Shown: piece by piece, positions 23,612 through 47,402 of the stretch
Layout of the letters: each line of letters begins with the position of its first letter
Position numbering within the stretch: the stretch's first letter is position 1
Origin: a virus
Reading direction: 5' to 3' (one strand)
DNA length: 64,000 nucleotides
IMG/VR virus record: IMGVR_UViG_3300005436_000501
Span: 62,001-126,000 of that record
Made by a program: the position numbers and the translations under genes
Notes under the pieces: generated by a model
Databases searched by the model: none
Told to the model about the DNA's origin: nothing
What the model saw: the letters and a program-made list of their open reading frames with translations, nothing else

Positions 23612-26600
23612 TCAGCCGTCCGTCGCGCCGACGCCGGCGCGGTCCGCCGGGGCGATCTCCGCGAGCGAAACGGTCACCGGCATGGGCGCGCACCGGCACC
23701 GAGTATGTCCAGGTGGTGATAAATCGCCGCTCTGGAAAGCCGCTCCGAGCGGCACGGCGCCCTCGGCCTCGTTCGGTTCGCAGACGCTCGAACACACGCG
23801 ATCATCATCAGCCGAGGCCCAGTAGGTGGCCTCAATGCCGTTGGCCCGGTACGTGTCCATCGACGCGGCGCTCGTTGCTCGCGCCAGTTCCGTGATCGCG
23901 ACCGCTTCGGCCCACGCGGGGTCATCGAGGATGCCGCGCAGTACCCCGGCCAGGGTGGCGGCCGAGTCTCCGCGCGCCAGGGCGTCGGACAGCGCCTTGG
24001 CCAGCTTGTCCAGGCGGTTGCTGGCGATCGACTTGATCGTGATCCCGGCCCGGTCGAGCAACAGCGCTAGTCCGTTGCGGCCGTTCTCGTCCAGGACCAG
24101 CCGGGCGGCGTCCACGTCTCCCGGGACCCACCGCGACCAGTCCACGCGCGCGCTGCCGGTCAGGACGGCGGTCGCGGACAGGTCCCCGATGACGTAGCCC
24201 TCGGTCCACAGCCCCACGATCAGGCCAGCGAGTACCACGGTCAGGTCCACACCACGTTCGGCGAGCCAGGAAGCGGGGTCCTGGGTGTAAGTGTCGGGGC
24301 CGGGCGGGTCGTCGGTGAAGTCGTTGGGCAGGTCGGGTTCGTCGGCCTTTCCGAGCATGGCGATGCGGTGCGCGATCCACGCCTCGGCAAGTGCTCGGGC
24401 ATTCAGGGCGCCGCGCATGGCTGTGCGGATGCGCGGCTTCCAGGCGGCGGCGGTCTGCTTGTCTCGGTCCCAGCCCGGCCAGTGCGGCCGGTCCGGGTCA
24501 CCGGCTTTTGGGACTTTGCCGACACCGCCCGCGGGCGCGAACACGATGCGCGGGTCGGCGAACATGTCGTCGGGCGCGTCGGCTTTGGTCAGGATCCGGG
24601 CGTGGAAGGCGCGGCCGGGCTTGGGGTTGCGGCGCGCCCAGTTGCGATAGGCGGCGATCTCCGCCTTGACGGACTGCGTGGTGGCTGGCGTCGGCGCGCC
24701 CTCGGACGCGTCCGACTCTTCGCCGTCACCGTCGTCGCCCTGGTCGTCCTCGAACTGGTCGGGCACGCCGTCCGCGTTGTCGTCCTTGTTCGGGGGCGAC
24801 TCCAGGGGCGTAACCGTCTCCCCTGCGGGCGCCAGCTTCGACGCGCCCTCCAGGAAGATCACGCCGCGGCTGGTCACCACGATCGGCATGTCCGCCTCGG
24901 GGAACGCATACCTCGGCAACCCGAGCCGGTCGCGGTCCTCGTTGTACGTCATCCGCGCGCTCTTCACGCGGGTGTCGGCAACCGCGTCGGCCGCCGCTTC
25001 GTCCTCGTCCTCGAGTCCGAGGATCTTGAATTCGAGTTCGCCGGGCATCCCCAGGTGCCGCCGGGAGATCCCGGTGACCAGTCCCTGGATCCACCGGTAC
25101 GTCGGCATGGTGGCGTTGCGGTCCTTGATGTCCGCCTGACCCTCGTGGTACCCGCTGGAGCCTAGACCGCCGGTCTCGGTGAAGTTGAGCTCCGCGATGG
25201 TCGTGGCGAAGTGCGCGGCGAGCTGCTTGAGCAGGAACAGGTCGTACTCGGGCTTGTAGCGCTCGGCGACGTCCGCGTGGGATTCGAGCTCGAACCCGGG
25301 CGGCAGGATCCGCATCCGGTGCCGCTCGAGCGTCTGCCCGGACCAGGCGTCGTTCAGGGCGGTCTCGTACTCCAGGACCTGCTGCGGCGTCCATGAACTG
25401 GTGGCGTTGTTGCGCAGCAGCCCGGCGGGCACGGTGCCGTCGGTGAACTCGGCGCGGATCCAGGCGCGCCGGCGCAGCCACACGTCGAGGTCCTCGAGGC
25501 ACTGCTCGACCGCGCTGAAGCCGTAGAGGGTCTCGGTGCGCACGTTGCGCCGCTTGTAGATCAGGGTGTCGGGCGCGTAGCCGTTGATGACCTTGCCCTG
25601 GTCGTCCACGTCTGCGACGTACTCGCCGCGCGGAAAGCCCCACAGGATCTGCTGGTACGCCGGGTTGGGCGGCAGGGGCTTGCCGCCGCGGTAGTCCCGC
25701 AGCACCTTAATGGTGTTGCCGCACCAGGCCGGCTTGCCGTTGCGCCGCACGTACAACACCTCGTTCGGCACCGACACGCAGAACACGTCGCCGTCATACG
25801 GCACCCCCTCGACACGCCACGTGCGAGCTTGCGTGTTCGACAGTCGGACCGAATACTTTGGCCGCATGTTCCCCGAGTGGATAACACGTCCATCACGCAT
25901 CACCGAGTCCGCGGTGGCCACGCTACGACTCACGTTGGCGCACTTGCCGATCTTCTGCGCGATCTCCTGTAGATCGTCAGCCATGCGGGGGCTGCACGTC
26001 GTGATGGTCTGACGATTCCCGTCGTAGCAGCCATCCCCCAGCATGTAGAAACGCCAGAAGATCTCAAGCTGGCGCGCAGACATGTTCTTGACGATGTCCG
26101 GGACATGCTTCTCGTGCGCTTTCCCGAACTGCGCAAGGTAGGAGTGGAGGCACTTCCGGCTGATGACGAACGACTTGCCGGTATGGCATACCTCGCGGCC
26201 GAAGATCCGCATGAGCAGGTCGCGGAACGGGCCGTATCCCTTCGACGCGGGGTCTTGCGTGATGCAGACGGCGTCCTTCTTCGCGCCGGTAACGCAGCCC
26301 TCGGAGAGGTACGCCCCCATGAAGGCCGCGAAGTCGTCGCCGCTGCACTCGAACGGCAGCGACGTGGTACGTCCAGAGGCGGCCAGTTTGAACTCGGCCA
26401 GGTCGGCGCCGATCCAGTGCGATGTCATCGGGATCTTCGACGCTTGGCCATTGCCGAATTCAGCCAACTCGGCTGCCGTGACAATTGCCTCGCCGCGATC
26501 CTGCCAGCGGGAGCCGCCCAGCGCGCGGGGCTTGGCGGTCACGAGCATCCGATGATTGCCCGTGACGAGGACATCCAGGGACTTCGACGTGAAGTGGTAG

Positions 26601-27475
26601 AGGTCGCCCTTGTGCGGGGCGCGGTGGAAGTACGTGGCCTGCTGCCACTCGAAGTCGTGCGTCTTGGGGTTGCGCGTCGCGAAGTCATCGTCGACGCGGG
26701 TGTCCGCGAAGCGGAGCCAGCCGCGTCGCGTCAAGACTTCAGTGTCGTCGGAGTAGCAGGACCCGTCCAATATCTCTAAAGCGTACAGGTCGCCGCCGTA
26801 CGTGCGCCTGGGATAGATCGCTAGGGCGTCCAACACGAGGTGCTCTTCGAGGAGTTTTCCGATCCAGTCGGTCCAGTCCTCGTCCTGGCCGGGGTCGGGC
26901 TTCTCCCAGAACGCGGAGCAGCGGGCGATCTCGGGTCCGAGGCGCCTGCGCAGGTCCGCCTCGACGTCGGCACGCGCCGAGGAGGGACTGTCGGCCTGCG
27001 CTTTCGCAACGGCCGACTTGGTGATGGTGATCGCCCATTCGAGGGTGGAGATCTCGTCCTTGCGGATCTGGATACAGCGCCGCGGGATCCCGCCGGCCGC
27101 GGCGGCGTCGCGCAGCACCTTCCACGGCACGAGCCGGTCGGTGACGCCGGGCAGGTTCGTGGAGACGGGGTATTCGCCGAAGCGGGGTTCGGGCCGGCCG
27201 GAGTCGCGCCGTACGGGGTCGATCGCGGCGGGGATCAGGGCGAGGCCGGGTCCGAACGCGACCTGCGGGTCCAGGCGTGGCAGCGGGTTGAAGCCGCCGC
27301 TGGTGGCCGGGGCGGTGTTCACGGCGGCGAGCAGCGCGGCGACCTGCGTTCCGGTGTAGGTGGTCGCTCCGGGTCCGACACCAGGCACCATAGCCTTGGT
27401 CATTTCGGCTTCGGTGCTGCGGCGCACCTGGTAGTGCTGGTTGCCGCCCTTGCGGTTGCGGTTGCGGCGACTCAC
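23612..27475 (-). CDS. Portal protein fused to MuF-like domain, interrupted by an intein
   Basis: 1,287 residues as translated, 939 after removal of the intein at residues 240-587. The extein has portal features: an N-terminal region with VPWKVLRDAAAAGGIPRRCI, the clip/stem segment after DGSTIKVLRDYRG, and LKQLAAHFATTIAELNFTET. After an acidic linker (~residues 950-980) the C-terminal ~250 residues are a MuF/SPP1-gp7-like minor head domain (ITELARATSAASMDTYRANG, ADDDRVCSSVC, PPGHTRCRC). Portal-MuF fusions occur in actinophages. Twelve copies would form the DNA gate at one capsid vertex. The intein sits right in the conserved DGS|TIK site, so it must splice for assembly. Confidence 0.9.
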   Translation of the reverse strand: MSRRNRNRKGGNQHYQVRRSTEAEMTKAMVPGVGPGATTYTGTQVAALLAAVNTAPATSGGFNPLPRLDPQVAFGPGLALIPAAIDPVRRDSGRPEPRFGEYPVSTNLPGVTDRLVPWKVLRDAAAAGGIPRRCIQIRKDEISTLEWAITITKSAVAKAQADSPSSARADVEADLRRRLGPEIARCSAFWEKPDPGQDEDWTDWIGKLLEEHLVLDALAIYPRRTYGGDLYALEILDGSCYSDDTEVLTRRGWLRFADTRVDDDFATRNPKTHDFEWQQATYFHRAPHKGDLYHFTSKSLDVLVTGNHRMLVTAKPRALGGSRWQDRGEAIVTAAELAEFGNGQASKIPMTSHWIGADLAEFKLAASGRTTSLPFECSGDDFAAFMGAYLSEGCVTGAKKDAVCITQDPASKGYGPFRDLLMRIFGREVCHTGKSFVISRKCLHSYLAQFGKAHEKHVPDIVKNMSARQLEIFWRFYMLGDGCYDGNRQTITTCSPRMADDLQEIAQKIGKCANVSRSVATADSVMRDGRVIHSGNMRPKYSVRLSNTQARTWRVEGVPYDGDVFCVSVPNEVLYVRRNGKPAWCGNTIKVLRDYRGGKPLPPNPAYQQILWGFPRGEYVADVDDQGKVINGYAPDTLIYKRRNVRTETLYGFSAVEQCLEDLDVWLRRRAWIRAEFTDGTVPAGLLRNNATSSWTPQQVLEYETALNDAWSGQTLERHRMRILPPGFELESHADVAERYKPEYDLFLLKQLAAHFATTIAELNFTETGGLGSSGYHEGQADIKDRNATMPTYRWIQGLVTGISRRHLGMPGELEFKILGLEDEDEAAADAVADTRVKSARMTYNEDRDRLGLPRYAFPEADMPIVVTSRGVIFLEGASKLAPAGETVTPLESPPNKDDNADGVPDQFEDDQGDDGDGEESDASEGAPTPATTQSVKAEIAAYRNWARRNPKPGRAFHARILTKADAPDDMFADPRIVFAPAGGVGKVPKAGDPDRPHWPGWDRDKQTAAAWKPRIRTAMRGALNARALAEAWIAHRIAMLGKADEPDLPNDFTDDPPGPDTYTQDPASWLAERGVDLTVVLAGLIVGLWTEGYVIGDLSATAVLTGSARVDWSRWVPGDVDAARLVLDENGRNGLALLLDRAGITIKSIASNRLDKLAKALSDALARGDSAATLAGVLRGILDDPAWAEAVAITELARATSAASMDTYRANGIEATYWASADDDRVCSSVCEPNEAEGAVPLGAAFQSGDLSPPGHTRCRCAPMPVTVSLAEIAPADRAGVGATDG
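25715..26758 (-). mobile_element. LAGLIDADG intein in the portal protein
   Basis: 348 residues, from Cys1 (CYSDDTEVLTRRGW, block A) to a terminal Asn (VLYVRRNGKPAWCGN, block G), followed by Thr as the +1 nucleophile. Block B is VTGNHRML (T-x-x-H). Two LAGLIDADG dodecapeptides are visible (FMGAYLSEGCV and FYMLGDGCYDG), so it carries a DOD homing endonuclease. Block F is YDGDVFCVSVPNE. The usual penultimate His is replaced by Gly, a known but uncommon variant. Its reading frame is continuous with both portal halves. Confidence 0.93.
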
Positions 27476-28985: not shown

Positions 28986-29209
28986 CAGGCGATCGGGACT
29001 CCGTTGAGCAGCCCGCTGGCGCACACGGCCTCGTGGGCGTCGCGGGTGCGCAGGTCCCGGGCCAGGGCGTGGGAGTCGTTCGAGGTCCAGTGCGCGCCAC
29101 AGAACTGGTGACCGCCAGCGCGGCACAGCAGCACCCGGAACAGTCCGTTCGTCGCACCGAAACTGCCGCCGAGCCGTCGCGGCCACAACACCCCGGACCA
29201 CCACCTCAC
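28985..29209 (-). CDS. Small Cys/His protein following TerL
   Basis: 74 residues from GTG at 29209, overlapping the TerL stop by four bases. LLCRAGGHQFCGAHWTSNDS suggests a Cys2His2-type metal site; the helical remainder ends AVCASGLLNGVPIA. No family recognised. Translational coupling to TerL is strong. Confidence 0.55.
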   Translation of the reverse strand: MRWWSGVLWPRRLGGSFGATNGLFRVLLCRAGGHQFCGAHWTSNDSHALARDLRTRDAHEAVCASGLLNGVPIA

Positions 29210-30702
29210 GCCGCTGCGGTGAGCCCGCGCAGCCACTCCATCGCCTGGTCCGCTGACCCGTGACCCCCGAGGAGCCGGGACACCGCCTGCGACATCGTAT
29301 CGACCTGATCGTCGTGTACCGCATTCGGGAAACCCGCGTGCTCCTCGATGAACGCCGCCACCCACGGCGCCGACGACGGGTCCGGCAGATGCACGTTGTG
29401 CGCCTCGACGAACGGCGCGACGGCCGAGGCGCGCGCGTACTTGGAGTCCTTCGGCGTCACCGCGATCAGGCCGGGAACCCGCGAACGCAGTTGTGCGATC
29501 ACGGCCGGTCCGTTCGCTTTGTCCTCGACGAGTTTCCCGTTGGCCTGTGGCCACTTCGCCGTCAGCGCCTCGAACGCCTTGCACGTAGCGGGGAAGTCGA
29601 GGCGGTCGCGCACCTGGTCCAGCAGGTACACGTCTGCGCCGCGCCGCCCCCACACCTGCCCGACGACATAATCCGAAACCTTTGTGTCCTTGAACGCCAT
29701 ATCCCAGGACTGGACGAGTTCGTCCATGCTGTCCGCGCGCCATGCGCCGTCGCTGCCGCAGCGGGCCAGCGCAGGACTGTAGTACTGCCAGTCGCCCCGT
29801 TTGAACAGCGTGCCCTCGGCCGGCGCGGGCCGTCCCTGGTAGAGGGCGTTCCAGACGCGCGCGCCGACCGCCGTCTTGATCTGCTCCCACTGCTCGCGGG
29901 TTCGCTTGCGTGCCGAAGGAAGGAACTCGCCGACCGGTCGTCCGAGCGGATCGTGCTGCCCCTTGTTCGGGTCGTGGTCCGCTTGAGCCGGGATGTTGAT
30001 GACTCGCCAGCGGTGGCCGTCCGCGGCGGCGAGCATGCGCCCGGCCAGGTCGTCCTCGTGCCAGCGGGTAAGGATCAGGATGACCGGCGCCCCGGGCGCG
30101 AGGCGCGTGTTCCCGACCGCGAGCCAGAACTTCCAGACCCGCTCGCGCCAGGTCGCCGACTGGGCCTGCGCCTCGTCCTTGATCGGGTCGTCGATATAGA
30201 GGATGTCGGCGGGGCGCCCGGTCAACCCCGCGGTGATGCCGACGCTGCGCACACCGCCGCGGCGCCCGGCGATACGCCACCTGCGGGCCGCGCCGTTGTC
30301 CGGGGCGATACGCAGACCGAGGTCGAGTTCGTCGTCTTCGCCGCTATTGGAGGTGATGTGGTTGCGGATGTTGCGGCCGAACTCGTCCGCGAGGTCCTGT
30401 CCATAGGAGACGATCGCGATGCGCAGGTCCGGGTTGCGGGTGAGCATCCACAGCGGGCCCACCGTGGTGACGCGGGTCGATTTGCCTTCCTGCGGCGGCA
30501 TGCTGATGATCAGTCGGTCGCAGCGACCTTCCGCCACGTCCACCAGTGCGGCGTCGATCAGGTCGAGTGCCCGGGTCTGGACCGTGCTCGGGTCGATCGC
30601 ACGGGCGAGGATCCCCGGGGTGACCCACGGCTGAACCTCGCTGCGGTCGCACTCTTCGTCGATGTGCTCCGCTGTGCGCTCAAGCAGGTCCATCCCGGCC
30701 AC
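29206..30702 (-). CDS. Terminase large subunit
   Basis: 498 residues from GTG at 30702 (an ATG at 30693 is an alternative). The ATPase has a Walker A-like MPPQEGKST at about residues 68-76 and a Walker B ILYIDDP at about 170, followed by a coupling motif (VILILTRWHEDDLAGRM). The C-terminal RNase H-like nuclease shows VQSWDMAFKDTKVSDYVVGQ, VEDKANGPAVI and the terminal acidic HDDQVDTMSQAV. It cuts concatemeric DNA and pumps it through the portal. It follows TerS by 11 bases. Confidence 0.97.
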   Translation of the reverse strand: MAGMDLLERTAEHIDEECDRSEVQPWVTPGILARAIDPSTVQTRALDLIDAALVDVAEGRCDRLIISMPPQEGKSTRVTTVGPLWMLTRNPDLRIAIVSYGQDLADEFGRNIRNHITSNSGEDDELDLGLRIAPDNGAARRWRIAGRRGGVRSVGITAGLTGRPADILYIDDPIKDEAQAQSATWRERVWKFWLAVGNTRLAPGAPVILILTRWHEDDLAGRMLAAADGHRWRVINIPAQADHDPNKGQHDPLGRPVGEFLPSARKRTREQWEQIKTAVGARVWNALYQGRPAPAEGTLFKRGDWQYYSPALARCGSDGAWRADSMDELVQSWDMAFKDTKVSDYVVGQVWGRRGADVYLLDQVRDRLDFPATCKAFEALTAKWPQANGKLVEDKANGPAVIAQLRSRVPGLIAVTPKDSKYARASAVAPFVEAHNVHLPDPSSAPWVAAFIEEHAGFPNAVHDDQVDTMSQAVSRLLGGHGSADQAMEWLRGLTAAA

Positions 30703-30713
30703 CTGCTTAGGGG

Positions 30714-31319
30714 CTAGGCGACCGAGCGAAGTCGTCGCGCGACCGCGCGCTTCGCGGCGACGGCGTCCTCACCGTCCAGCCCGACATCCCGGATCGCTTC
30801 AGCGACAGCCTTGGAGATCAGCTCGACCTTGTCCTGCTCGATGCGTGTCAGCCGTTCGTCGATCCGCAGCCGCGCGTACGACGACAGGACGGTGTTCGCC
30901 CGGTCCATCGCCCGCTCGTAGAGTTGCACGACGGCCTGGATCTGGACGCCTGCGTACTCGGATTCGTAGCCGACGACCTGCAGGTCGTCGAGCAACTTGT
31001 CCATCAGGTCCAGCCACGCCATGACGCGCCCGGCGAACGCGGCGTAGGCGGCCAGCGGATTCTCTACCGGGGCGGACTCGGGAGCGACCTTGCCGAAGAG
31101 TTCGCGCGCTTCACGATCAACCAATTCGACCAACTCGGCGTGCCCGGCTTTCGCCCCGGCCGGCGCGCAGCCGCCGTGAAGCTTGCATCGGCCGGCGCCC
31201 GCGTGGTCGGTGCCCCAGCCGGCGGGTCGCGTGCACAGTCCTTCGCCCTGCTTCTTCTTGCCGCCGCAGTGCCGACTGTCATGGATGGGGGGGCGGTTGC
31301 CGCCTGTCATGGATGGCAC
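30714..31319 (-). CDS. Terminase small subunit-like protein with HGG motif
   Basis: 201 residues from GTG at 31319 (ATG at 31310 possible). The N-terminal Cys/His region (RHCGGKKKQGEGLCTRPAGW, HAGAGRCKLHGGCAP) is the zinc-binding 'HGG' start typical of actinophage small-terminase genes. The helical C-terminal part (AGRVMAWLDLMDKLLDDLQV, RIDERLTRIEQDKVELISKA) suits oligomerisation and TerL contact. It is directly upstream of TerL and recognises the packaging site. Confidence 0.85.
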   Translation of the reverse strand: MPSMTGGNRPPIHDSRHCGGKKKQGEGLCTRPAGWGTDHAGAGRCKLHGGCAPAGAKAGHAELVELVDREARELFGKVAPESAPVENPLAAYAAFAGRVMAWLDLMDKLLDDLQVVGYESEYAGVQIQAVVQLYERAMDRANTVLSSYARLRIDERLTRIEQDKVELISKAVAEAIRDVGLDGEDAVAAKRAVARRLRSVA

Positions 31320-31368
31320 CGAAGTTCGACGGCCTTGTGGTCGTGGCCGTCATCGGGCGGTGGGGACA

Positions 31369-31788
31369 TCAGGGACTCGCCGGCGCGCGGTTGTCGCTCG
31401 TGCAGACGCAGGCGCTGTAGCCGCCGCAGTCCGCTTGGTGGAGGTGATCGCAGGTGTCGGGCTTCGGCTGCGCGGCGATGCGCGCCGGATGCTCGACCGG
31501 GCGCTGCGTCCCGTCGGGTTTCACGCACGGATCGCCCACGGCGGCGGCGCAGTCGGGGCACGGCACCGGCTGCGGTTCGGTGTGGGTGCATGTCGACACC
31601 AAGGCGTGGTCGCCGCACCCGTGGACGGTGACGCGCACCACGCCGCTTCGGTCCTGTACGTAGCTGGGGTTCCCGGACGCGATGATCGACGCTTCGAGCG
31701 CGGACCAGTGCGCCGCGGCCTCGACGTCGGTCGCGTAGCGCTCCCAGTGCATTTCCGCCGGGGCGCCGCAAATGTGGCAGTCGGGCAC
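31369..31788 (-). CDS. Cys-rich zinc-binding phage protein
   Basis: 139 residues from GTG at 31788 (AGGGGG site). The sequence has several Cys pairs: CHICGAP at the start, VPCPDCAAAVGDPC in the middle with the KPDGTQRPVEHPAR phrase typical of small zinc-finger proteins of actinophages (zf-CPxC type), and DCGGYSACVC near the end. It probably binds nucleic acid or tRNA-like targets; no tested function is known to me. Confidence 0.65.
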   Translation of the reverse strand: MPDCHICGAPAEMHWERYATDVEAAAHWSALEASIIASGNPSYVQDRSGVVRVTVHGCGDHALVSTCTHTEPQPVPCPDCAAAVGDPCVKPDGTQRPVEHPARIAAQPKPDTCDHLHQADCGGYSACVCTSDNRAPASP

Positions 31789-31799
31789 GGCACGCCCCC

Positions 31800-32663
31800 T
31801 TACGCGGTGCGGGTGAGCACGATGCGCTCGACCTGTCCGATGAAACCGGTCGCGGACGCGTTCTGCGTGAGCATCGCGAGGGTGACGGTGTGCTGACCGG
31901 CGCCTATCGTGAGCCCGGTCAGGGCGCTGCGGGTGGGGGTGAGGCTTGCCGCGTATCCGTCGATCGTGCCGGCCGTGACGCCGTCGATCTTCACGGTGTA
32001 GATGCCGCGCGACTGGAACCGCGGGTGGAAAAGCTCGAACGTGTAGGTGCCCACGTCACAGGCGAAATCGAGACTGATCGTGTCGCCCTGGGTGCCATCA
32101 CTTTGGTTGACCCACCCGTAGAACGCGGGATCCGCGATGTACGTGGGCGTCCACGCCCCGACGGGCGCGACCACGGTCGACGGCTGGCCGTTGGCCTGGA
32201 TGGCGACCTGCCGGGAGAACGTGCTGGCGCCGGCTGCGGCGAAGGTGACGTCGACTCGGTTGCTCGCGGGATTGTCGGCGGCGGTGACGGTCGCGTTGGC
32301 GCCCGCGATCAGGTTTACCTCGGACCGGACGCCCTTGACGGTGCCGCCGACCGCGACCTGCACTGGGGCGGACGGGGTCGGCGGGACACCCGCGAGAACC
32401 TGGCTGAGGTTGTACGGGCCGCCGCTGGCCGGGACGATGATGCTCGCGATCGTCTGGCCTGCGGTGACCTGGTAGAACGTGCCCGCCGTGTTCGGGGTCA
32501 GATCCAGGGACCAGTTGCCGCCGTTGTCGCTGCGGATCGTCGTCGGCGTGCCGGTCGCGGCGCCGGGGTTGAGCGGGCTGCCGCTCATCGGCGTGATGCC
32601 GACGCTGGTGTATTTGAGGGGCGCGCCGCCCGAGTCGGTGGCTGTGCCCTGGATGACGGTCAT
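31800..32663 (-). CDS. Appendage protein with N-terminal strand repeats and carbohydrate-binding-like domain
   Basis: 287 residues with a GGAGGTCC site before the ATG. The start (TVIQGTATDSGGAPLKYTSV) is a carboxypeptidase-regulatory or Big-like domain. The C-terminal ~140 residues have a CBM-like jelly roll (GDTISLDFACDVGTYTFELF, GIYTVKIDGVTAGTIDGYAA, HTVTLAMLTQNAS). Lying upstream of TerS, away from the main tail block, it may be a capsid fibre or receptor-binding accessory. Confidence 0.7.
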   Translation of the reverse strand: MTVIQGTATDSGGAPLKYTSVGITPMSGSPLNPGAATGTPTTIRSDNGGNWSLDLTPNTAGTFYQVTAGQTIASIIVPASGGPYNLSQVLAGVPPTPSAPVQVAVGGTVKGVRSEVNLIAGANATVTAADNPASNRVDVTFAAAGASTFSRQVAIQANGQPSTVVAPVGAWTPTYIADPAFYGWVNQSDGTQGDTISLDFACDVGTYTFELFHPRFQSRGIYTVKIDGVTAGTIDGYAASLTPTRSALTGLTIGAGQHTVTLAMLTQNASATGFIGQVERIVLTRTA

Positions 32664-32721
32664 CGCGCGGACCTCCTGTCTGTCGCGTGCAGGGGCCAGC
32701 GCGGGCGGCGCGCGGGTTCGC

Positions 32722-33234
32722 CTACCGGTCTTGCGCCAGGGCGAGCCGCGCGAGGTCCGCGGGGACGACGTAGCCGGACCAGCGGTGGTCGTCGAAGATC
32801 TGCCAGCCGCCGAGCTGCGCGGCCTTGTCGGCGAGGCGGCTGCAGATCGCGTGGCCGGTGGCGTCGATGTAGTCGCGCAGCCCGGGGATCGGCAGGTGGA
32901 AGCGGTGCGCGGCGAGGGCGAAATATTCGAGCGCCGAGTAGGGGGTGTCTTTGAGGTGCCGGGCTGCGGCGGTGACGCTGTCGCGGTGTTGCGCGGGGCA
33001 GCGCAGCCACAGGACGGGGCGGTCGTCGTATTCGGTGAGGCTGGCGATGCGGGCTCCGCCGGGTTCGGCTTCGAGGAGTTCGCCGTCGCCGAGGTAGACG
33101 AAGCAGTGTTCCCAGGGCTGGAATCCGTCGCCGAGCAGGTACTGGCCCAGGGAGATGAGGCGGCCGGCGTCGCCGTGGATGGTAGTGATGCCGATGTCGC
33201 CCGGTTCGGGGGCGGCGGCGCCGGTCGCGGTCAC
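32722..33234 (-). CDS. Permuted NlpC/P60 (YiiX-like) papain-fold amidase
   Basis: 170 residues from GTG at 33234 (GTGA overlap). The order of motifs is that of a circularly permuted papain fold: PGDIGITTIHGDAGRLISLG, then WEHCFVYLGDGELLEAEPGG with the catalytic His, and AICSRLADKAAQLGG with the catalytic Cys near the C-terminus. Such enzymes cleave peptidoglycan peptides, lipids or protein amides. It could be a virion-associated lysin or a late effector. Small holin-like and Ig-like genes lie immediately upstream in the same operon. Confidence 0.75.
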   Translation of the reverse strand: MTATGAAAPEPGDIGITTIHGDAGRLISLGQYLLGDGFQPWEHCFVYLGDGELLEAEPGGARIASLTEYDDRPVLWLRCPAQHRDSVTAAARHLKDTPYSALEYFALAAHRFHLPIPGLRDYIDATGHAICSRLADKAAQLGGWQIFDDHRWSGYVVPADLARLALAQDR

Positions 33235-33407
33235 TGCGGGGGTCGGCGGGTCCACGTGGTCGTTCCGATGCCGCACAGGTGCAGCGCGACGCAGACGAGG
33301 CCTGCGAGGATGAGGCTGGTCGGGGAGAACCAGGCGTTGGTGTGGTCGCCGGATCCTGAGAGGACGAAACCGATCCCGAAGAGGATCGCGGCGATGATGG
33401 CGAGCAT
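33231..33407 (-). CDS. Two-helix holin-like membrane peptide
   Basis: 58 residues (MLAIIAAILFGIGFVLSGSG, then WFSPTSLILAGLVCVALHLC): two membrane helices joined by a short polar turn, basic C-terminus (TTTWTRRPPQ). It starts three bases after the stop of the upstream gene and overlaps the amidase start. The pairing with a peptidoglycan-type hydrolase suggests a holin or pinholin, making a second lysis-like pair besides the one at the left edge. Confidence 0.6.
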   Translation of the reverse strand: MLAIIAAILFGIGFVLSGSGDHTNAWFSPTSLILAGLVCVALHLCGIGTTTWTRRPPQ

Positions 33408-33409
33408 GC

Positions 33410-33958
33410 TCAGCCGGCGGGCGCGGGGGCGGGCTGGTCGGTGACCGGTCCGGCGGTCAGGCCCAGCGAGGTGGCCGGGCCGCTGACGACGTCGAACACG
33501 AACGGCGCCGAGTTGCCGGACGCGTCGGTCGCGGTGAGGGTGACGCCGGTCGCGGGGATAGCGCCGAGCAGGGTGACCGAGAGGGTGTCGGCGGACACCT
33601 CGAGCGGCTTGACGGCGGTGGTGTTGTCGACGGTCCACTCGACGGTGTCGCTGGTGGGCTGACCGGCGGCGTCCTTGGGGGTGGCGGTGATGACGACCTG
33701 CTGGCTGTCGCCGAGTTCGAGCGCCATGTCTTCTCCTGTGGTGGTGGGGGCGACCGCGCCGGTGCGCTGGTCGGTGATGGGTCCTGCGGTCAGGTCGAGT
33801 GAGAGCGGCGCGATGAGCCAGGCGTAGATCTCTTCGGCGGCGTCGAGGATCTCCTCGGTGCGCTGGTCGAGGCCTGCGCGGCGGGGGCCCATTTCGTTTG
33901 CGTCGATGCGGGCGGCGAGGTCTGCGGCGGCTTCACGCAGGCGCATCCGGTCGCTCAT
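33410..33958 (-). CDS. Big/Ig-like domain protein
   Basis: 182 residues with a GGAGGCGAC site. An N-terminal helix (RMRLREAAADLAARIDANEM, IDAAEEIYAWL) precedes an immunoglobulin-like domain with Big_2 character (SQQVVITATPKDAAGQPTSD, VTLTATDASGNSAPFVFDV). The phrase LTAGPITDQRTGA recurs near the C-terminus as LTAGPVTDQPAPA, an internal duplication. It is probably a capsid decoration protein that adheres to cell-surface glycans. Confidence 0.65.
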   Translation of the reverse strand: MSDRMRLREAAADLAARIDANEMGPRRAGLDQRTEEILDAAEEIYAWLIAPLSLDLTAGPITDQRTGAVAPTTTGEDMALELGDSQQVVITATPKDAAGQPTSDTVEWTVDNTTAVKPLEVSADTLSVTLLGAIPATGVTLTATDASGNSAPFVFDVVSGPATSLGLTAGPVTDQPAPAPAG

Positions 33959-33996
33959 GTCGCCTCCGGTTCGTTGTGGTCCAGTGCCGAGCGTGG

Positions 33997-34278
33997 TCAG
34001 TTCGCTCCGGCGCAGAGGCGTTCGTCGGGTTCGAGCGGCCGGGCCGGCAGCACGAACGTGCAGGCGCCGAGTTGCGCGATGCGTTCACCGGCGGGCCACC
34101 AGGGCGGGCCGTCGTTCTCTTGGCCTTCGGGTACGGCGACGCGGCCCTCGTACCAGGGCGTGTTGTCTTGCAGGGTGTGGCCGCAGGCGGCGCAGGTTTG
34201 GACGGGTCCGACGGGTGGGGCGGCGGTGTGCACGGTCCACGGCTCGTCGTCGGGGTCCTGGATCGCGGCGCGCGTCAC
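33997..34278 (-). CDS. Small zinc-knuckle protein
   Basis: 93 residues from GTG at 34278, four-base overlap with the preceding gene. QTCAACGHTLQDNTPWYEGR has one CxxC followed by further Cys (GACTF, ERLCAGAN), a likely zinc knuckle. No family recognised. Confidence 0.55.
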   Translation of the reverse strand: MTRAAIQDPDDEPWTVHTAAPPVGPVQTCAACGHTLQDNTPWYEGRVAVPEGQENDGPPWWPAGERIAQLGACTFVLPARPLEPDERLCAGAN

Positions 34279-34712
34279 GTCTCCGCGATCCGCATCTCGG
34301 CGACCGCGTACCGGAACAGCGCGGTGCGGAAGCTCTGGCCGTCTTGCGTGGGGACGGCTTTGCCGCGTCCGATCGGCTTGCCGTCGGCGTCGACCAGTCG
34401 CTCCAGGGTTGCGGTCGTGACTCCGCGCGGGTCGACGTTGACGCGCAGGTTGAGCACGTCGGCGGTCCACTGCTCGCCGGTGTCGGCGTCCGCGACCACG
34501 ACACCGAAGCCGGGAACGGCCAGTCCCGCCGGGCGGGGCCAGGTGATGACGACGCGTCCGGCGAGTTCGTCGGCGCGCGGGACCTCGCGTTGGCCGGGGC
34601 AGTCCCGGTCGACGATGACGGGGGTGACGCTCACGCTGATCGGGTCGAGCGGGCGGCAGACGCAGTCCGGGCCGTGCTGGGTGCCGACGACGGCTTGGAC
34701 TTCGCGCGCCAT
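34275..34712 (-). CDS. Conserved hypothetical protein
   Basis: 145 residues starting MAREVQAVVGTQHGPDCVCR. The middle (RVVITWPRPAGLAVPGFGVV, DLRVN-type strand RVNVDPRGVTTATLERLVD) resembles a small beta-barrel accessory. Overlaps neighbours by 1 and 4 bases. No function recognised. Confidence 0.55.
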   Translation of the reverse strand: MAREVQAVVGTQHGPDCVCRPLDPISVSVTPVIVDRDCPGQREVPRADELAGRVVITWPRPAGLAVPGFGVVVADADTGEQWTADVLNLRVNVDPRGVTTATLERLVDADGKPIGRGKAVPTQDGQSFRTALFRYAVAEMRIAET

Positions 34713-35107
34713 CAGGCGGTGGCGGGTGTCGCGGCGAGGAACGCAGCCCACGCCTCGGGTGCGGCATGCCAGCGGCAACGGTCGGACCCGGGGATCGCGT
34801 GGCCGGTGCAGCCGGGTCCGTCGTTGGCCGGTTCGTCGCAGGGCCGGTGCGGTGCGGCGTCAAGCAGTCGCAGCGACTTCTTGGCGTTGACGCACCCCTG
34901 CCCGGAGGTGGGGATCGTGCCGGGCTTGCGGGGTCGCGCGGCCTTGGTGTCGGCGCGGCGTCGGCGGGTGCGGCGGGACTCTTCGCGCAGGGTGCGGGCG
35001 AACATCCCGGGCATGGCGCTGCGGGCCGGTTCGGGCTGCTCGACGACGGCGTGCGGCTGGATCATCGCCATCTTCGCGCGCAGCAGGAGCGTGTTCGGGC
35101 TCGCCAT
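34712..35107 (-). CDS. Basic Cys/His protein
   Basis: 131 residues starting MASPNTLLLRAKMAMIQPHA. The C-terminal part PCDEPANDGPGCTGHAIPGS..RCRWH looks like a zinc-binding fingerprint (C-C-H-C-H), and the middle is Arg/Lys-rich (REESRRTRRRRADTK). Nucleic-acid binding is likely. Directly precedes the Acb2-like gene in reverse order of transcription (downstream of it). Confidence 0.55.
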   Translation of the reverse strand: MASPNTLLLRAKMAMIQPHAVVEQPEPARSAMPGMFARTLREESRRTRRRRADTKAARPRKPGTIPTSGQGCVNAKKSLRLLDAAPHRPCDEPANDGPGCTGHAIPGSDRCRWHAAPEAWAAFLAATPATA

Positions 35108-35421
35108 CAGGCGTTCGCCTCCGGCTTCTCGTTGCGGGCGATCGCGGCGTTGGCCCACATGACGACCTGTTCGAGGTTCGTCAGGGCGAGCGAGCGTTCC
35201 CGTGACGGCGGGCACAGTCGATCGAGCAGGCAGGCGAGGTCGAGCCCGGCGGCGCGGATCTGCTCGTAGCGCTGGGGCTGGTCGCCGGTCGGCGGATGAT
35301 AGGTGAACCGGTTCGCCAGGTCGTCGCCGGTCGGCAACGGCACTGCCGCGACCGGATCTGCAGATCCGGAGTCCTTGAGTTCGTTGGGTGACACGGCGCC
35401 GGATGGGCTGGTCCCGCTCAA
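35107..35421 (-). CDS. Acb2/Tad1-hairpin family protein (DUF7681-like), predicted anti-CBASS sponge
   Basis: 104 residues from TTG at 35421 (GTG at 35394 possible). After a ~35-residue variable leader, the family core is plain: NRFTYHPPTGDQPQRYEQIR, then GLDLACLLDRLCP and SRERSLALTNLEQVVMWANA ending AAIARNE. This is the helical hairpin of the Acb2/Tad1 domain. Acb2 of Pseudomonas phages binds cyclic di- and trinucleotides and blocks CBASS immunity; Tad1 relatives sponge Thoeris signals. It lies in an operon of small accessory genes behind the packaging module, a typical place for anti-defence genes. Ligand preference cannot be read from sequence. Confidence 0.82.
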   Translation of the reverse strand: MSGTSPSGAVSPNELKDSGSADPVAAVPLPTGDDLANRFTYHPPTGDQPQRYEQIRAAGLDLACLLDRLCPPSRERSLALTNLEQVVMWANAAIARNEKPEANA

Positions 35422-35422
35422 C

Positions 35423-35725
35423 TCAGGCGCCCTTGCCGGTCTCGGCGACGGCGGTCTCGACGTCGCTCACGGCTTCTGCGCCGAGCTTCGCGGCGTCCGC
35501 GCCGGCTTCGTGCTCGGCCGGGACGACACCCTGCGTCTCAGCAGTCGCTACGAGCTGGGCCGCATCGGCCTCGGCTTCGTGCTCAAGCACGGGCGCGTCG
35601 CCGCGCAGCTCCTCGTACACGTTCTTCGCTTGTCCGGCGAGGTGGTGGCCTTCGGCGTCGAGTGCCGCCCACAGGGCGCGGGCCTTGTCGAGGGCTGCCT
35701 CGTATGCGGCCTTCATCGCGGCCAT
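35423..35725 (-). CDS. Small acidic helical protein upstream of the Acb2-like gene
   Basis: 100 residues, almost wholly alpha-helical and Ala/Glu-rich (MAAMKAAYEAALDKARALWA, AGQAKNVYEELRGDAPVLEH). The stop is followed within two bases by the TTG of the Acb2-like gene, so the two are translationally linked. It could be a DNA-mimic-like inhibitor because it is strongly acidic, but this is a guess. Confidence 0.6.
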   Translation of the reverse strand: MAAMKAAYEAALDKARALWAALDAEGHHLAGQAKNVYEELRGDAPVLEHEAEADAAQLVATAETQGVVPAEHEAGADAAKLGAEAVSDVETAVAETGKGA

Positions 35726-35925
35726 CAGGTCTCCAGGGGTCTTGGTTTCGTGTCGCCGACCCGGCGGACGAGGACTTCGAGGTCGCGTCCGTCCCAGTCG
35801 CCGGCGAGCAGGAGGGTGGCGCCGTTGTCGACGACCCGGTGGATGCGTACCTGGATCTCGTCGAGGTGCGGGTCGTTGGATCTAACGGCGAGCAGGTCGC
35901 CCGCTCGTGGCGGTCGGTAGGCCAT
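35725..35925 (-). CDS. Small beta protein
   Basis: 66 residues (MAYRPPRAGDLLAVRSNDPH, then VRIHRVVDNGATLLLAGDWD). Strand-rich with a short SH3-like pattern. The stop overlaps the next start by one base. No family recognised. Confidence 0.55.
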   Translation of the reverse strand: MAYRPPRAGDLLAVRSNDPHLDEIQVRIHRVVDNGATLLLAGDWDGRDLEVLVRRVGDTKPRPLET

Positions 35926-35945
35926 GGGGTCTCCGGCCGGGCGGG

Positions 35946-36173
35946 TTACCGGGCGAGCGTGTGCAGGATGTGCAGCAGGAGCGTCGAGAAGATCGAGAGT
36001 GCGTATTCGAGCGCTCCCAGCAGGATCAGGTTCAGGATGGCGAGGACCACCAGGGCGGCCAGCAGGAGGCGTTGCACGGTGGCGGCCGATCGTGCGCGGG
36101 CGGATCGGGTCAGGCCGGGCTGAGGATTCCGTCGCGCAGCCACCAGTGCCCGTCGCATTTGCCGCGGCGCCAC
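35946..36173 (-). CDS. Single-pass membrane peptide
   Basis: Up to 75 residues from GTG at 36173; a GTG at 36077 would give 43 residues and avoid a 64-base overlap with the upstream gene. Only the membrane part is convincing: QRLLLAALVVLAILNLILLG and ALSIFSTLLLHILHTLAR. It may be a small membrane effector or superinfection factor. Start uncertain. Confidence 0.45.
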   Translation of the reverse strand: MAPRQMRRALVAARRNPQPGLTRSARARSAATVQRLLLAALVVLAILNLILLGALEYALSIFSTLLLHILHTLAR

Positions 36174-39678: not shown

Positions 39679-40362
39679 TCAGTCGCCTTCCGTGGTCGGG
39701 GTGTCGCGGAGTTCGAGGTTGCTGGTCTCGTTGTTGCGCGGGTCGCCGTCGCGGTGGTGGACCTGCTTGCCGGACCTCCACGTCCCGGCCGCCCACTGCT
39801 CGATGTCGGCCAGGTCCCACAGCGGGGTGCGCCCGATGTGGCGGCGCGGTTTCGGCGCCTGGCCGCGGGCGACGTACCCGGTCCAGGTGCCCGGGGCGAT
39901 CGGGCGATCGTGCTCGCGCAGCCAGGTCAGGACCGTGTCGCGGGTCATGCCCGTGTCGGCCGCGCCCGCCTCCAGTGAGGGCACGGGTGCGGCGGGGTGC
40001 GCGCCGAGCGGATGCCAGTCGGGGGGGATGCGGCGGGCCTGCTGCTCGAGATATTCGGCGGGGCTCATCGTCGAGGTGGCGGGGTAGTCGGACCAGCCGC
40101 GCCAGGCGCGCCGCTCGGGTTGCGCGGCCTGCGCGTCGGTGTACCACAGGGCCCAGTCGGGGGCGGTGTCGCGGATGGGGCGGTCGCGCTGCACCCAGAT
40201 ATCCACGGCGGTGCGCAGCGGGGTGGCGGCGACGGCTTCGACCAGGGCGCGGGCGCGGGGGGTGAGGGTGTCGAGGTCGACGTCTTCGTAGAGGGCGGCC
40301 ACGGGGTTGCCGTCGTCGTCGGTGGTGTCGCGGCGCAGTTTGACGCGGACGGTGTTGCCCAT
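39679..40362 (-). CDS. HTH protein with C-terminal HNH-like motif
   Basis: 227 residues. The N-terminal ~115 residues are unknown (DVDLDTLTPRARALVEAVAA). Residues ~135-190 hold a DNA-binding segment (GMTRDTVLTWLREHDRPIAP, GRTPLWDLADIEQWAAGTW) like a phage excisionase/AlpA-type HTH. The last 22 residues, KQVHHRDGDPRNNETSNLEL, match the HNH/AP2-associated nuclease core (HH..D..NN...NL), but the rest of an HNH domain is absent. It may be a decayed HNH enzyme fused to an HTH, or a metal-binding DNA protein. Confidence 0.65.
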   Translation of the reverse strand: MGNTVRVKLRRDTTDDDGNPVAALYEDVDLDTLTPRARALVEAVAATPLRTAVDIWVQRDRPIRDTAPDWALWYTDAQAAQPERRAWRGWSDYPATSTMSPAEYLEQQARRIPPDWHPLGAHPAAPVPSLEAGAADTGMTRDTVLTWLREHDRPIAPGTWTGYVARGQAPKPRRHIGRTPLWDLADIEQWAAGTWRSGKQVHHRDGDPRNNETSNLELRDTPTTEGD

Positions 40363-44228: not shown

Positions 44229-45371
44229 TTAGCTGGCGGGCAGTTGCGGGGCGCCGGCGGCGGGCAGCGCGTCCTGGCCGCCGGTGTCGGCGACGCCGTA
44301 GAACGCGCCGTGCGCCCCGGAATGCCCGGTCGCCATCGCGGCCTCGGCGTGCGGCATCTGGTGGCTGGCGAGCACGTCGAGCGCGGTGCGCGCGGTCTCG
44401 TGGTAGTTCGCCGCGGCGGACGCCATCACGGACGCGGTCGCGGCGGCGTCGTGGCACTGCGCGGAGAACGTCGCGGTCTGGTCGCGGTAGACCTGGCCGG
44501 CTTCGAGCAGGGCGTGGTAGGCGGCGGTGGACTCGGGGTCGACGCGCAGCATCGCCATCGCGGCGACGGCGTGTTCGAGGGAGGTGGTTTCGTCGGTGAC
44601 GCGGGCCGCGGTCTCCCCGGCGAACTCCGCTCCGGCGATCATGGAGGCGGAGGCGGCGGCGGCGTCTTCGGATTCCATGCCGGCGACTTGCGCGGTCTGG
44701 CCGGTGAAGTGGACGAGGGACTCGAGGTCGGTGATGTCGGCGGCCATGGTGTCGGGGTACTCCTGGGGCTTGGGGACGAGGTGAAGGGGGACGCGGCCGA
44801 GTCGGCGCAGGGCGACCAGGATCGGGGTGGGTGCGGCGGGTGCGTCGCCGGGTTCGGTGGCGGCGTCCTCGGGGGCCGGGGCGGGTGCGGTCCCCGGGCG
44901 CGGGGGCGTGTCTCCGGAGCCGGGCGGCGGGGAGTCCGGCCCGGGGGTCGGCCCGGGTGCTGCCGCGGCCCGCGGGCCGCGGGGGGTGTCGGCCGCGTCC
45001 GGGGCGGCGTCGCGTGCGGGGCGTCGTCGTTCGTTCCAGTCGCGGGCGCGGCGCGCGCCGGCTGCGGTGTGGCGGCGTCCGGCCCGGTACAGCTCGATCC
45101 CGGTGGCCCAGCCCAGGGCGAACCCGACGCCGGTGGCCCAGCCGAAGCGGTGCGCGGCGTGCAGGGTGCGGCCGTGCACCAGCGCGCCGAACCGCCCGGA
45201 CCGGGTGGTCGGGGCGGTGGCCGCGGCGCCCGCCGCGGTGGCGGGGGCGCCGGAATCGGGGCTCGCGCCACCGGGGGTGCGCAGCGACTCGCGCACCCCG
45301 GCGGCGGCGGACACCGCCAGCACGATCAGGTAGTAGCCGACGATCGCGTCGAGCAGGTCCTTGAACGTCAT
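44229..45371 (-). CDS. Membrane-anchored protein with helical C-terminus (Spd-like)
   Basis: 380 residues. An N-terminal membrane helix (VGYYLIVLAVSAAAGVRESL) is followed by a second hydrophobic stretch (FGWATGVGFALGWATGIELY), a Pro/Ala-rich linker and a long helical C-terminal region (LESLVHFTGQTAQVAGMESE, HAVAAMAMLRVDPESTAAYH). Such membrane proteins with coiled tails flank TraB genes in actinobacterial conjugative elements and help DNA spread within mycelium. Function inferred only from context. Confidence 0.6.
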   Translation of the reverse strand: MTFKDLLDAIVGYYLIVLAVSAAAGVRESLRTPGGASPDSGAPATAAGAAATAPTTRSGRFGALVHGRTLHAAHRFGWATGVGFALGWATGIELYRAGRRHTAAGARRARDWNERRRPARDAAPDAADTPRGPRAAAAPGPTPGPDSPPPGSGDTPPRPGTAPAPAPEDAATEPGDAPAAPTPILVALRRLGRVPLHLVPKPQEYPDTMAADITDLESLVHFTGQTAQVAGMESEDAAAASASMIAGAEFAGETAARVTDETTSLEHAVAAMAMLRVDPESTAAYHALLEAGQVYRDQTATFSAQCHDAAATASVMASAAANYHETARTALDVLASHQMPHAEAAMATGHSGAHGAFYGVADTGGQDALPAAGAPQLPAS

Positions 45372-46211: not shown

Positions 46212-46727
46212 GGGGTGTCACGTGCCGCCCGGGAGCGCTCGGGGGTGTCACCGGTGGGGGTGTCATGAGGCGCGCCGTTCGGGGGTGTCGTCCGCGTCCC
46301 GGGGGGTGTCACCGGCGGGGGTGTCGCTGCGGCGGCGGCTGCGTGTCACGCGCACGTAGACCTTGTCGACGGTGACACCCCGTGCGGCGAGCAGCGCCAC
46401 GACGTGGGAGGCGACACGGTCGGGCAGCAGGTCGTCCAGGCGCCGCACGGCCTCCGCGTTGGACATCTCCGCCCAGGCCGGGGGGCCTGCGGCGTCGAGG
46501 ACTTTGAGGTCGGCTTCGAAGTCGGCGTGGCTGAGCGGCACGGTGACACCCGTAGCGGGGGGTGTCGCTGCGGCGGTGCGCGATACCCGGGGCTTGCGGG
46601 GTGCGGTGCGGGGCGCTGATACGCGGGGTTTCGCGGGGCGTATCACCCGGGGGGTGTCACTCGCGCGGGGGGTGTCGACGGCCGGGGTATCAGCGGGGGT
46701 GTCGGCTGCGGGCGGCGTGGGGGTGTC
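46212..46727. repeat. Array of 8-bp GGGGTGTC repeats
   Basis: Exact copies start at 46212, 46242, 46257, 46282, 46303, 46318, 46559, 46651, 46669, 46696 and 46720 (11 in direct orientation) and one inverted copy at 46374. Six fall within 114 bases around the stop codon of the DUF2637 gene and two lie entirely beyond it, so coding need does not explain them. In the coding part they create Asp-Thr-Pro runs. Short direct octamers near spd/tra genes act as TraB recognition sites in Streptomyces plasmids; this is a candidate transfer locus. Confidence 0.6.
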
Positions 46728-47402
46728 CGCTTCGCCGAGGCTGATGCTCAGGCGCACCGCGGCGGACACCTTCCAGCGCCACGCGCGCCCGTGGGTGTCG
46801 CGCAGGGCGGCGATCCGGGCCAGGCGCGCCCGCTCCTGGGCGAGCGCGGCCGGGTAGGAGTTGGTGCGCCACAGCACCATGCGCCGCCACAGCTTCAGCG
46901 TCGGCCAGGGGGACAGCAGCCAGCGGGCGGCGGGGATCGGTTCGCGCAGGTTCGCGTCGCCCTTGAGCGCGGTGCGCCGCACCACGTGCCGCATCAGTTC
47001 GACGAACATCACCCACACCGACGGCATCAGCACGTGTGCGATGCGCCCGGCCGGGTCGCCCCCTGCGGCGTAGTTGAGGGCGACGGTGCCGAAGGTCGCG
47101 CCGTACACGGTGGCGCGGGCGAGCGGGTGGCTCATGCCGAGGCGGTTGAGGACCAGGTCGACGCCGGAGAACACCAGGACGGTCAGGTCGACGACGAGGG
47201 GTACGAGCCACGCCCAGCGGGGACCGAAGCTGGGGGTCATGCGCTCGGACACGGCGTGGAAGGACAGGGTCATGCCGGCGACGGCGATGAGGGCGGCGAG
47301 GATCCCGATGACGACGGTGACGGTGGTCCAGCCGGCGCCGAGGGGTTCGGGGTCGTTGTGTGTGTCGTGGGTGGTCATGGCCGCCTCGGTGGTCGTGGTC
47401 AT
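46263..47402 (-). CDS. DUF2637 membrane protein (Spd/transfer-associated)
   Basis: 379 residues with a GGAGG site. The N-terminal ~150 residues are the DUF2637 domain: helix 1 VTVVIGILAALIAVAGMTLS, FHAVSERMTPSFG, helix 2 AWLVPLVVDLTVLVFSGVDL, then YGATFGTVALNYAAGG and HVLMPSVWVMFVELMRH. The soluble C-terminus contains DTP repeats (ADTPADTPAVDTP), an Arg/Pro/Ala-rich linker and a small helical domain (LSHADFEADLKVLDAAGPPA, VASHVVALLAARGVTVDKVY). DUF2637 proteins are common in Streptomyces plasmids and AICEs, usually beside transfer genes. Confidence 0.82.
   Translation of the reverse strand: MTTTTEAAMTTHDTHNDPEPLGAGWTTVTVVIGILAALIAVAGMTLSFHAVSERMTPSFGPRWAWLVPLVVDLTVLVFSGVDLVLNRLGMSHPLARATVYGATFGTVALNYAAGGDPAGRIAHVLMPSVWVMFVELMRHVVRRTALKGDANLREPIPAARWLLSPWPTLKLWRRMVLWRTNSYPAALAQERARLARIAALRDTHGRAWRWKVSAAVRLSISLGEADTPTPPAADTPADTPAVDTPRASDTPRVIRPAKPRVSAPRTAPRKPRVSRTAAATPPATGVTVPLSHADFEADLKVLDAAGPPAWAEMSNAEAVRRLDDLLPDRVASHVVALLAARGVTVDKVYVRVTRSRRRSDTPAGDTPRDADDTPERRAS

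What the first reader, a model, noticed from the sequence alone, without database searches (positions are those of the whole stretch)
35107..35421. Predicted anti-CBASS (Acb2-like) cyclic-nucleotide sponge
The domain NRFTYHPPTG...SRERSLALTNLEQ...MWANAAIARN is the Acb2/Tad1 hairpin. Acb2 proteins neutralise CBASS (and some Thoeris) signals. In a Streptomyces-like host, where CBASS is common, this is a concrete functional prediction, and its neighbours become anti-defence candidates.
Basis: partly seen in the sequence, partly recalled or inferred. Interest (0 to 1): 0.8.

Follow-up and report, generated by a model that had tools for sequence, protein, structure and literature searches.

The report
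Acb2-like immune-signal sponge in actinophage
A phage of a probably actinobacterial host carries a small protein of the known Acb2 family, which most likely soaks up the alarm nucleotides bacteria use against phages; it is an ordinary new member of a family already annotated in many such phages.

Summary
Residues 40-96 match the whole of Pfam PF24729 (Acb2_Tad1_hairpin) at 88 bits against a cut-off of 27, E 4.6e-25. The predicted fold is a short helix plus a long helical hairpin, as in Acb2, without Tad1's beta domain. The best Foldseek match among solved structures is T4 Vs.4 (Acb2), though with a poor E-value. Of the five Vs.4 residues reported to contact cGAMP, two are kept or conservatively changed (Y8 to Y41, K23 to R56). 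H11, R79 and F82 become P44, A92 and A95, so ligand choice cannot be read off. The family is common: 338 of 50,697 phage records match, and actinophage members are already published as Acb2. The record is a tailed phage whose nearest terminases are mostly from Arthrobacter and Glutamicibacter phages; a Streptomyces-like host is unproven. The neighbouring genes are almost never found beside acb2 in 80 related contigs, so nothing supports calling them anti-defence genes. Verdict: correct call, new member of a known kind, low novelty. Open question: which signal this Tad1-flavoured subfamily (phrog_1454) binds.

The parts
35107..35421 (-). acb2-like gene, 104 aa, TTG start; Acb2/Tad1 hairpin domain at residues 40-96
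   Evidence: PF24729 E 4.6e-25; phrog_1454 E 3.1e-30; model with helices 32-38, 48-69, 74-97
35134..35304 (-). coding stretch of the hairpin domain
   Evidence: the genome search places the match at G000:C1:97134-97304, i.e. window 35134-35304
35423..35725 (-). upstream neighbour ORF, 100 aa, no family match; ends 1 base before the acb2 TTG (possible translational coupling)
   Evidence: not found near acb2 in 80 related loci
34712..35107 (-). downstream neighbour ORF, 131 aa, no family match at E<0.2 (tested without its first 12 residues); its ATG overlaps the acb2 stop (TGATG)
   Evidence: not found near acb2 in 80 related loci
29206..30702 (-). terminase large subunit, same strand, about 4.4 kb downstream; identifies the record as a tailed phage
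   Evidence: phrog_38 E 8.1e-110; nearest records listed

Best explanation
The gene encodes a small Acb2-type sponge. The protein most likely folds as a short N-terminal helix plus an antiparallel helical hairpin, assembles into a hexamer through the alanine/leucine faces of the hairpin, and holds cyclic di- and/or trinucleotides in pockets between protomers, using Y41 and R56. By lowering the free signal during infection it would keep a CBASS-type (or related cyclic-nucleotide) effector from killing the host. Shown here: gene, domain, predicted monomer fold, residue conservation. Inferred: hexamer, ligand binding, anti-CBASS action.
For: PF24729 E 4.6e-25 over the full profile; T4 Vs.4, whose cGAMP binding (Kd about 30 nM) and hexamer are reported in PMC10097602 (passages), matches the same profile at E 7.1e-20. 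AF2 model pLDDT 86 with helices 32-38, 48-69, 74-97, the layout that PMC12043709 gives for Acb2. Foldseek PDB ranks 1-2 are Vs.4, prob 0.98-0.99; of the 8 BFVD matches at E<=0.001, 7 are named Acb2/Tad1 hairpin proteins and one has no name. hhalign of 47 family rows vs 13 Vs.4 rows, E 1.8e-4, puts Y8 on Y41 (45 of 47 rows Y) and K23 on R56 (R in 47 of 47); hexamer residues L29, A66, A77 are L62, A79, A90 (L 35, A 47, A 47 of 47). Relatives found are mostly in phage collections (338 of 50,697 phage records; 6 of 72,556 plasmid records).
Against: Three of five cGAMP-contact residues of Vs.4 differ: H11->P44, R79->A92 (A in 47 of 47), F82->A95 (A in 47 of 47), although Pseudomonas Acb2 also has A at the F82 position while keeping R at R79 (alignment). 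Hexamer residue A73 is V86 here. Foldseek E 0.36 and VIA Z about 6 are no better than unrelated helical hairpins. hhalign probability only 49%. No binding or infection data; host and its defences unknown.
Confidence: 0.8

Rival explanations
1. A sponge of the same fold, but for a different signal: the subfamily keeps the Tad1-like helix signature (SRE..LALT..E..MW.N) and has lost R79/F82, so it may take cyclic trinucleotides or another messenger rather than cGAMP-type dinucleotides, and antagonise something other than dinucleotide CBASS.
For: R74 (46 of 47 rows), E75, N91, A92, A95 invariant or nearly so; profile search hits Tad1 chains only through this 20-residue stretch; H11, R79, F82 of Vs.4 not kept.
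Against: Y41 and R56, at dinucleotide-contact positions of Vs.4, are also kept; trinucleotide-site residues could not be read (the relevant papers are not held).
Confidence: 0.3
2. A Tad1-type anti-Thoeris protein that sequesters gcADPR.
For: Shared hairpin; Tad1 chains match at E 0.003 and appear at Foldseek rank 4 (prob 0.21).
Against: No strand in the model; [quoted passage not shown]
Confidence: 0.07
3. The domain has been co-opted for an unrelated phage function (for example a small helical structural or regulatory protein) and binds no immune signal.
For: No functional test of a phrog_1454 member was found; PHROGs lists it as unknown function; the gene lies upstream of the terminase gene.
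Against: Invariant polar residues (Q48, R56, E75, N91) over 47 divergent rows fit a binding site; Pfam and published annotations treat the family as Acb2-like.
Confidence: 0.12

Closest known systems
Acb2 of T4 (Vs.4, PDB 7uq2)
   Same: Same Pfam domain over the full profile, same helix layout, Y8/K23 and three of four tested hexamer residues kept or conservatively changed
   Different: H11, R79, F82 and A73 differ; shorter linker between the long helices; query has a 31-residue N-terminal coil if the TTG start is right
Acb2 (p26) of Pseudomonas phages (PDB 8h2j, 8ixz)
   Same: Same fold class (VIA Z 5.8-6.0, tied with unrelated rows); also A where Vs.4 has F82
   Different: Keeps R at the R79 position; not found by the query or family profile in the PDB sequence searches
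Acb2 homolog 43 (PDB 9ptq)
   Same: Best solved-sequence match of the family profile, E 3.7e-5
   Different: No paper found for it in the searches made; its ligand is unknown to me
Tad1 (PDB 7uav, 8kbb)
   Same: C-terminal helix motif SRE..ALT..E..MW.N
   Different: Tad1's N-terminal beta-sheet is absent here
Putative Acb2 of actinophages Xandras gp101 (PMC11953737, passages) and Statler gp57 (PMC13348362, part 1 of 2 read)
   Same: Xandras gene 101 matches the query by tblastn, E 1e-4, 28.9% (H114); same kind of host group
   Different: Annotated by homology only; more distant in sequence

Membership tests
Acb2 (anti-CBASS 2) | Acb2/Tad1 hairpin domain (PF24729) | tested here: met
   88 bits vs cut-off 27, profile 1-58
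[quoted passage not shown]
   Predicted model, pLDDT 86: H32-38, H48-69, H74-97. A prediction only; structural scores do not separate it from other helical hairpins
Acb2 (anti-CBASS 2) | Dinucleotide-contact residues (Vs.4 Y8, H11, K23, R79, F82) | tested here: inconclusive
   Y41 and R56 fit; P44, A92, A95 do not
Acb2 (anti-CBASS 2) | Hexamer-interface residues (Vs.4 L29, A66, A73, A77) | tested here: inconclusive
   Query L62, A79, V86, A90: 3 of 4 identical; assembly itself not predicted
Acb2 (anti-CBASS 2) | Hexamer binding cyclic di-/trinucleotides | not testable with these tools
   Needs purified protein
Acb2 (anti-CBASS 2) | Relief of CBASS during infection | not testable with these tools
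   Needs plaque assays; host unknown
Tad1 (Thoeris anti-defence 1) | N-terminal antiparallel beta-sheet joined to the hairpin | tested here: not met
   No strand in the model; residues 1-31 are coil, block-mean pLDDT 67-78 over residues 1-30
Tad1 (Thoeris anti-defence 1) | C-terminal hairpin helix with SRE..ALT..E..MW.N | tested here: met
   Query residues 72-94 align with Tad1 chain residues 88-110; profile match
Tad2 | Tad2-like domain (PF11195) in the record | tested here: not met
   No match in the 127,094-base record

The most novel reading that the evidence does not exclude
phrog_1454-type proteins form a separate and widespread third branch of the Acb2/Tad1 hairpin sponges, spread over actinophages, Paenibacillus phages and uncultured viruses, whose invariant SRE / N91-A92 / A95-R96 helix replaces the R79/F82 pocket of T4 Acb2 and binds a different messenger from the one known for Vs.4; the signal could point to an uncharacterised actinobacterial nucleotide-signalling defence.
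Probability: 0.2. Interest if true: 0.55.

Novelty: new member of a known kind. Interest (0 to 1): 0.22.

Why it matters
It confirms that a sequence-only reader called an anti-defence family correctly, and gives a compact test case from a common branch of the Acb2/Tad1 family for which I found no experiment. A 2024 preprint (PMC11722364, passages) calls Acb2 relatively rare and restricted to specific phage groups; the hairpin domain is found here in at least 338 phage records with one query. Knowing which signal this branch binds would tell which cyclic-nucleotide defences matter in actinobacteria.

Tried and rejected
Tad1 membership: rejected for lack of the beta domain. One relative, L017 (171 aa), has an N-terminal extension that I suspected from memory to be Tad1-like; phmmer of the whole protein and of the first 93 residues gave no PDB match and Pfam gave only the hairpin plus a sub-threshold hit, so this was dropped.

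Anti-defence island: 15 neighbouring or nearby window proteins plus two more ORFs were searched in the 80 related loci. Hits: terminase 1 of 80, the 31800-32663 protein 1 of 80, the 34275-34778 protein 1 of 80, portal 2 of 80 (short pieces), all others 0 of 80. One further query (named p35725) was read in the wrong frame by my script and is void; it was redone correctly (0 of 80). Only 39 of 80 loci are 12 kb or longer and 20 are under 8 kb, so the denominators are generous.

Regulatory palindrome: a perfect 18-base palindrome lies inside the N-terminal coding part (35352); 4 such occur in the window against a mean of 0.98 in mononucleotide shuffles, and one other (30972) shares its CTGCAG core; not pursued.

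Host: no tRNA gene in the window; nearest terminases are Glutamicibacter, Microcystis and Arthrobacter phages, nearest primase relatives are Gordonia and Mycobacterium phages at about 30%. Actinobacterial host likely, genus not determined. A nucleotide-level search of 29001-36000 found only the terminase stretch in its 8 listed rows of 38.

Fold comparison: Foldseek against PDB gave no match at E<=0.001, and VIA-align ranks a Synechococcus protein of unknown function (4dci, Z 6.5) level with Vs.4 (Z 6.3); fold alone would not carry the claim.

One search was swamped by unrelated 'locking' papers and says nothing about 9ptq.

Dropped rows: the family alignment A1 holds the query and 46 of the 80 loci, chosen by me for short clean ORFs; long-extension, truncated, duplicate or fused ones (including L029, whose ORF my script missed) were left out. 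Of the 35 loci of the Vs.4 scan, 12 plus T4 itself went into A2.

Full report
What is there. The ORF at 35107-35421 on the minus strand is real: 104 residues from a TTG, containing the quoted segments. It sits in a tightly packed same-strand gene string: the upstream ORF stops one base before the TTG and the downstream ORF starts inside the stop codon. The window is bases 62001-126000 of a 127,094-base virus record. Codon bias is weaker in the first 34 codons, so the true start could be GTG at codon 27.

What it is. Residues 40-96 cover the whole Pfam model PF24729, Acb2/Tad1 hairpin, at E 4.6e-25; phrog_1454 matches at E 3.1e-30. It is the only such domain in the record. tblastn finds relatives in 338 of 50,697 phage records at E<=1e-3: Mycobacterium 198, Paenibacillus 59, Gordonia 43, Streptomyces 16 and others; in 207 of 230 candidate stretches of viral contigs, of which 80 were kept; in 21 of 41 candidate stretches of bacterial genome contigs (not checked for being prophages); and in only 6 of 72,556 plasmid records. 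In 47 aligned rows F39, P44, Q48, R56, E75, A79, A90, N91, A92 and A95 never change.

Fold. AlphaFold2 with that alignment gives helices 32-38, 48-69 and 74-97, mean pLDDT 86, with residues 1-31 as coil. This is the short helix plus two long antiparallel helices that the review PMC12043709 (two of four parts of the text read) describes for Acb2, without Tad1's beta-sheet. Foldseek's first two PDB matches are T4 Vs.4 (probability 0.98-0.99, E 0.36); Tad1 is fourth at 0.21. VIA-align gives Vs.4 Z 6.3 and Acb2 Z 6.0, level with unrelated hairpins, so the structural scores alone are weak; the sequence profile is what carries the assignment. In the viral library the seven named matches at E<=0.001 (of eight) are all called Acb2/Tad1 hairpin proteins.

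Pocket and assembly residues. PMC10097602 (passages) reports that Vs.4 binds cGAMP with Kd about 30 nM as a hexamer, that Y8 and F82 stack on the bases, that Y8, H11, K23 and R79 make polar contacts, and that L29, A66, A73 and A77 are needed for the hexamer. The profile alignment maps these to Y41, A95, P44, R56, A92 (contacts) and L62, A79, V86, A90 (hexamer). Thus Y8 is kept, K23 becomes the invariant R56, three of four hexamer residues are identical, while H11, R79 and F82 are lost. Pseudomonas Acb2 also has alanine at the F82 position but keeps R79. The family instead has a C-terminal helix motif shared with Tad1. So the machinery for a hairpin sponge is plausible, but the preferred ligand is open.

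Surroundings. The record is a tailed phage: terminase 29206-30702, a portal-MuF fusion 23612-27475, tape measure 9879-12776, minor tail protein 13901-14914. The terminase is nearest to Glutamicibacter (60%), Microcystis (59%) and Arthrobacter (52-55%) phages. Together with 70.5% G+C this makes an actinobacterial host likely; 'Streptomyces-like' was not shown. acb2 lies about 4.4 kb 5' of the terminase on the same strand. In 6 of the 60 spread rows (464 records in all, E limit 10) the relative lies within 1.2 kb of the record start; this positional hint was not tested. Neighbouring genes do not travel with acb2: at most 1 of 80 loci for any near neighbour. No Tad2-like domain is present.

Literature. 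Actinophage proteins have already been published as Acb2 on homology grounds: Statler gp57 (PMC13348362, first of two parts read) and Xandras/BigBubba (PMC11953737, passages), the latter stating that the role in mycobacteriophage infection is unknown. My query matches Xandras gene 101 at E 1e-4. I found no functional test of a phrog_1454 member in the searches made, which cover only openly licensed papers.

Verdict. A new member of a known kind, low surprise. What would make it interesting is a measured ligand.

Noticed in passing
window:23612-27475 (-): Portal-MuF fusion gene with an in-frame insert at about residues 239-588 that looks like an intein (starts CYSDDTEVL.., LAGLIDADG-like blocks, ends ..RNGKPAWCGN-T); PHROG matches at the edges of this part are to thymidylate synthase and ribonucleotide reductase families, which commonly carry inteins (recalled).
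   Followed up: partly
window:41554-43740 (-): 728-aa protein with a weak FtsK/SpoIIIE ATPase match and a C-terminal winged helix (AbiEi_4), not far from a DUF2637 protein at 46263-47402; resembles actinobacterial plasmid transfer genes (recalled) and might mean a phage-plasmid.
   Followed up: no
window:59817-62137 (+): Prim-Pol protein followed by a primase/polymerase-like protein on the opposite strand to the structural genes; relatives in Gordonia and Mycobacterium phages at about 30% identity.
   Followed up: no
window:37293-38132 (-): MUG113/T5orf172 domain protein near acb2, and an HNH protein at 39679-40362.
   Followed up: no
window:40600-41247 (-): YdjM-type inner membrane protein match (PF04307, E 1.3e-20).
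   Followed up: no
window:30971-30990 and 44963-44982: Two perfect 20-base palindromes.
   Followed up: no
L017:372-887 (+): 171-aa relative with a long N-terminal extension before the hairpin; possible different domain architecture of the family.
   Followed up: partly
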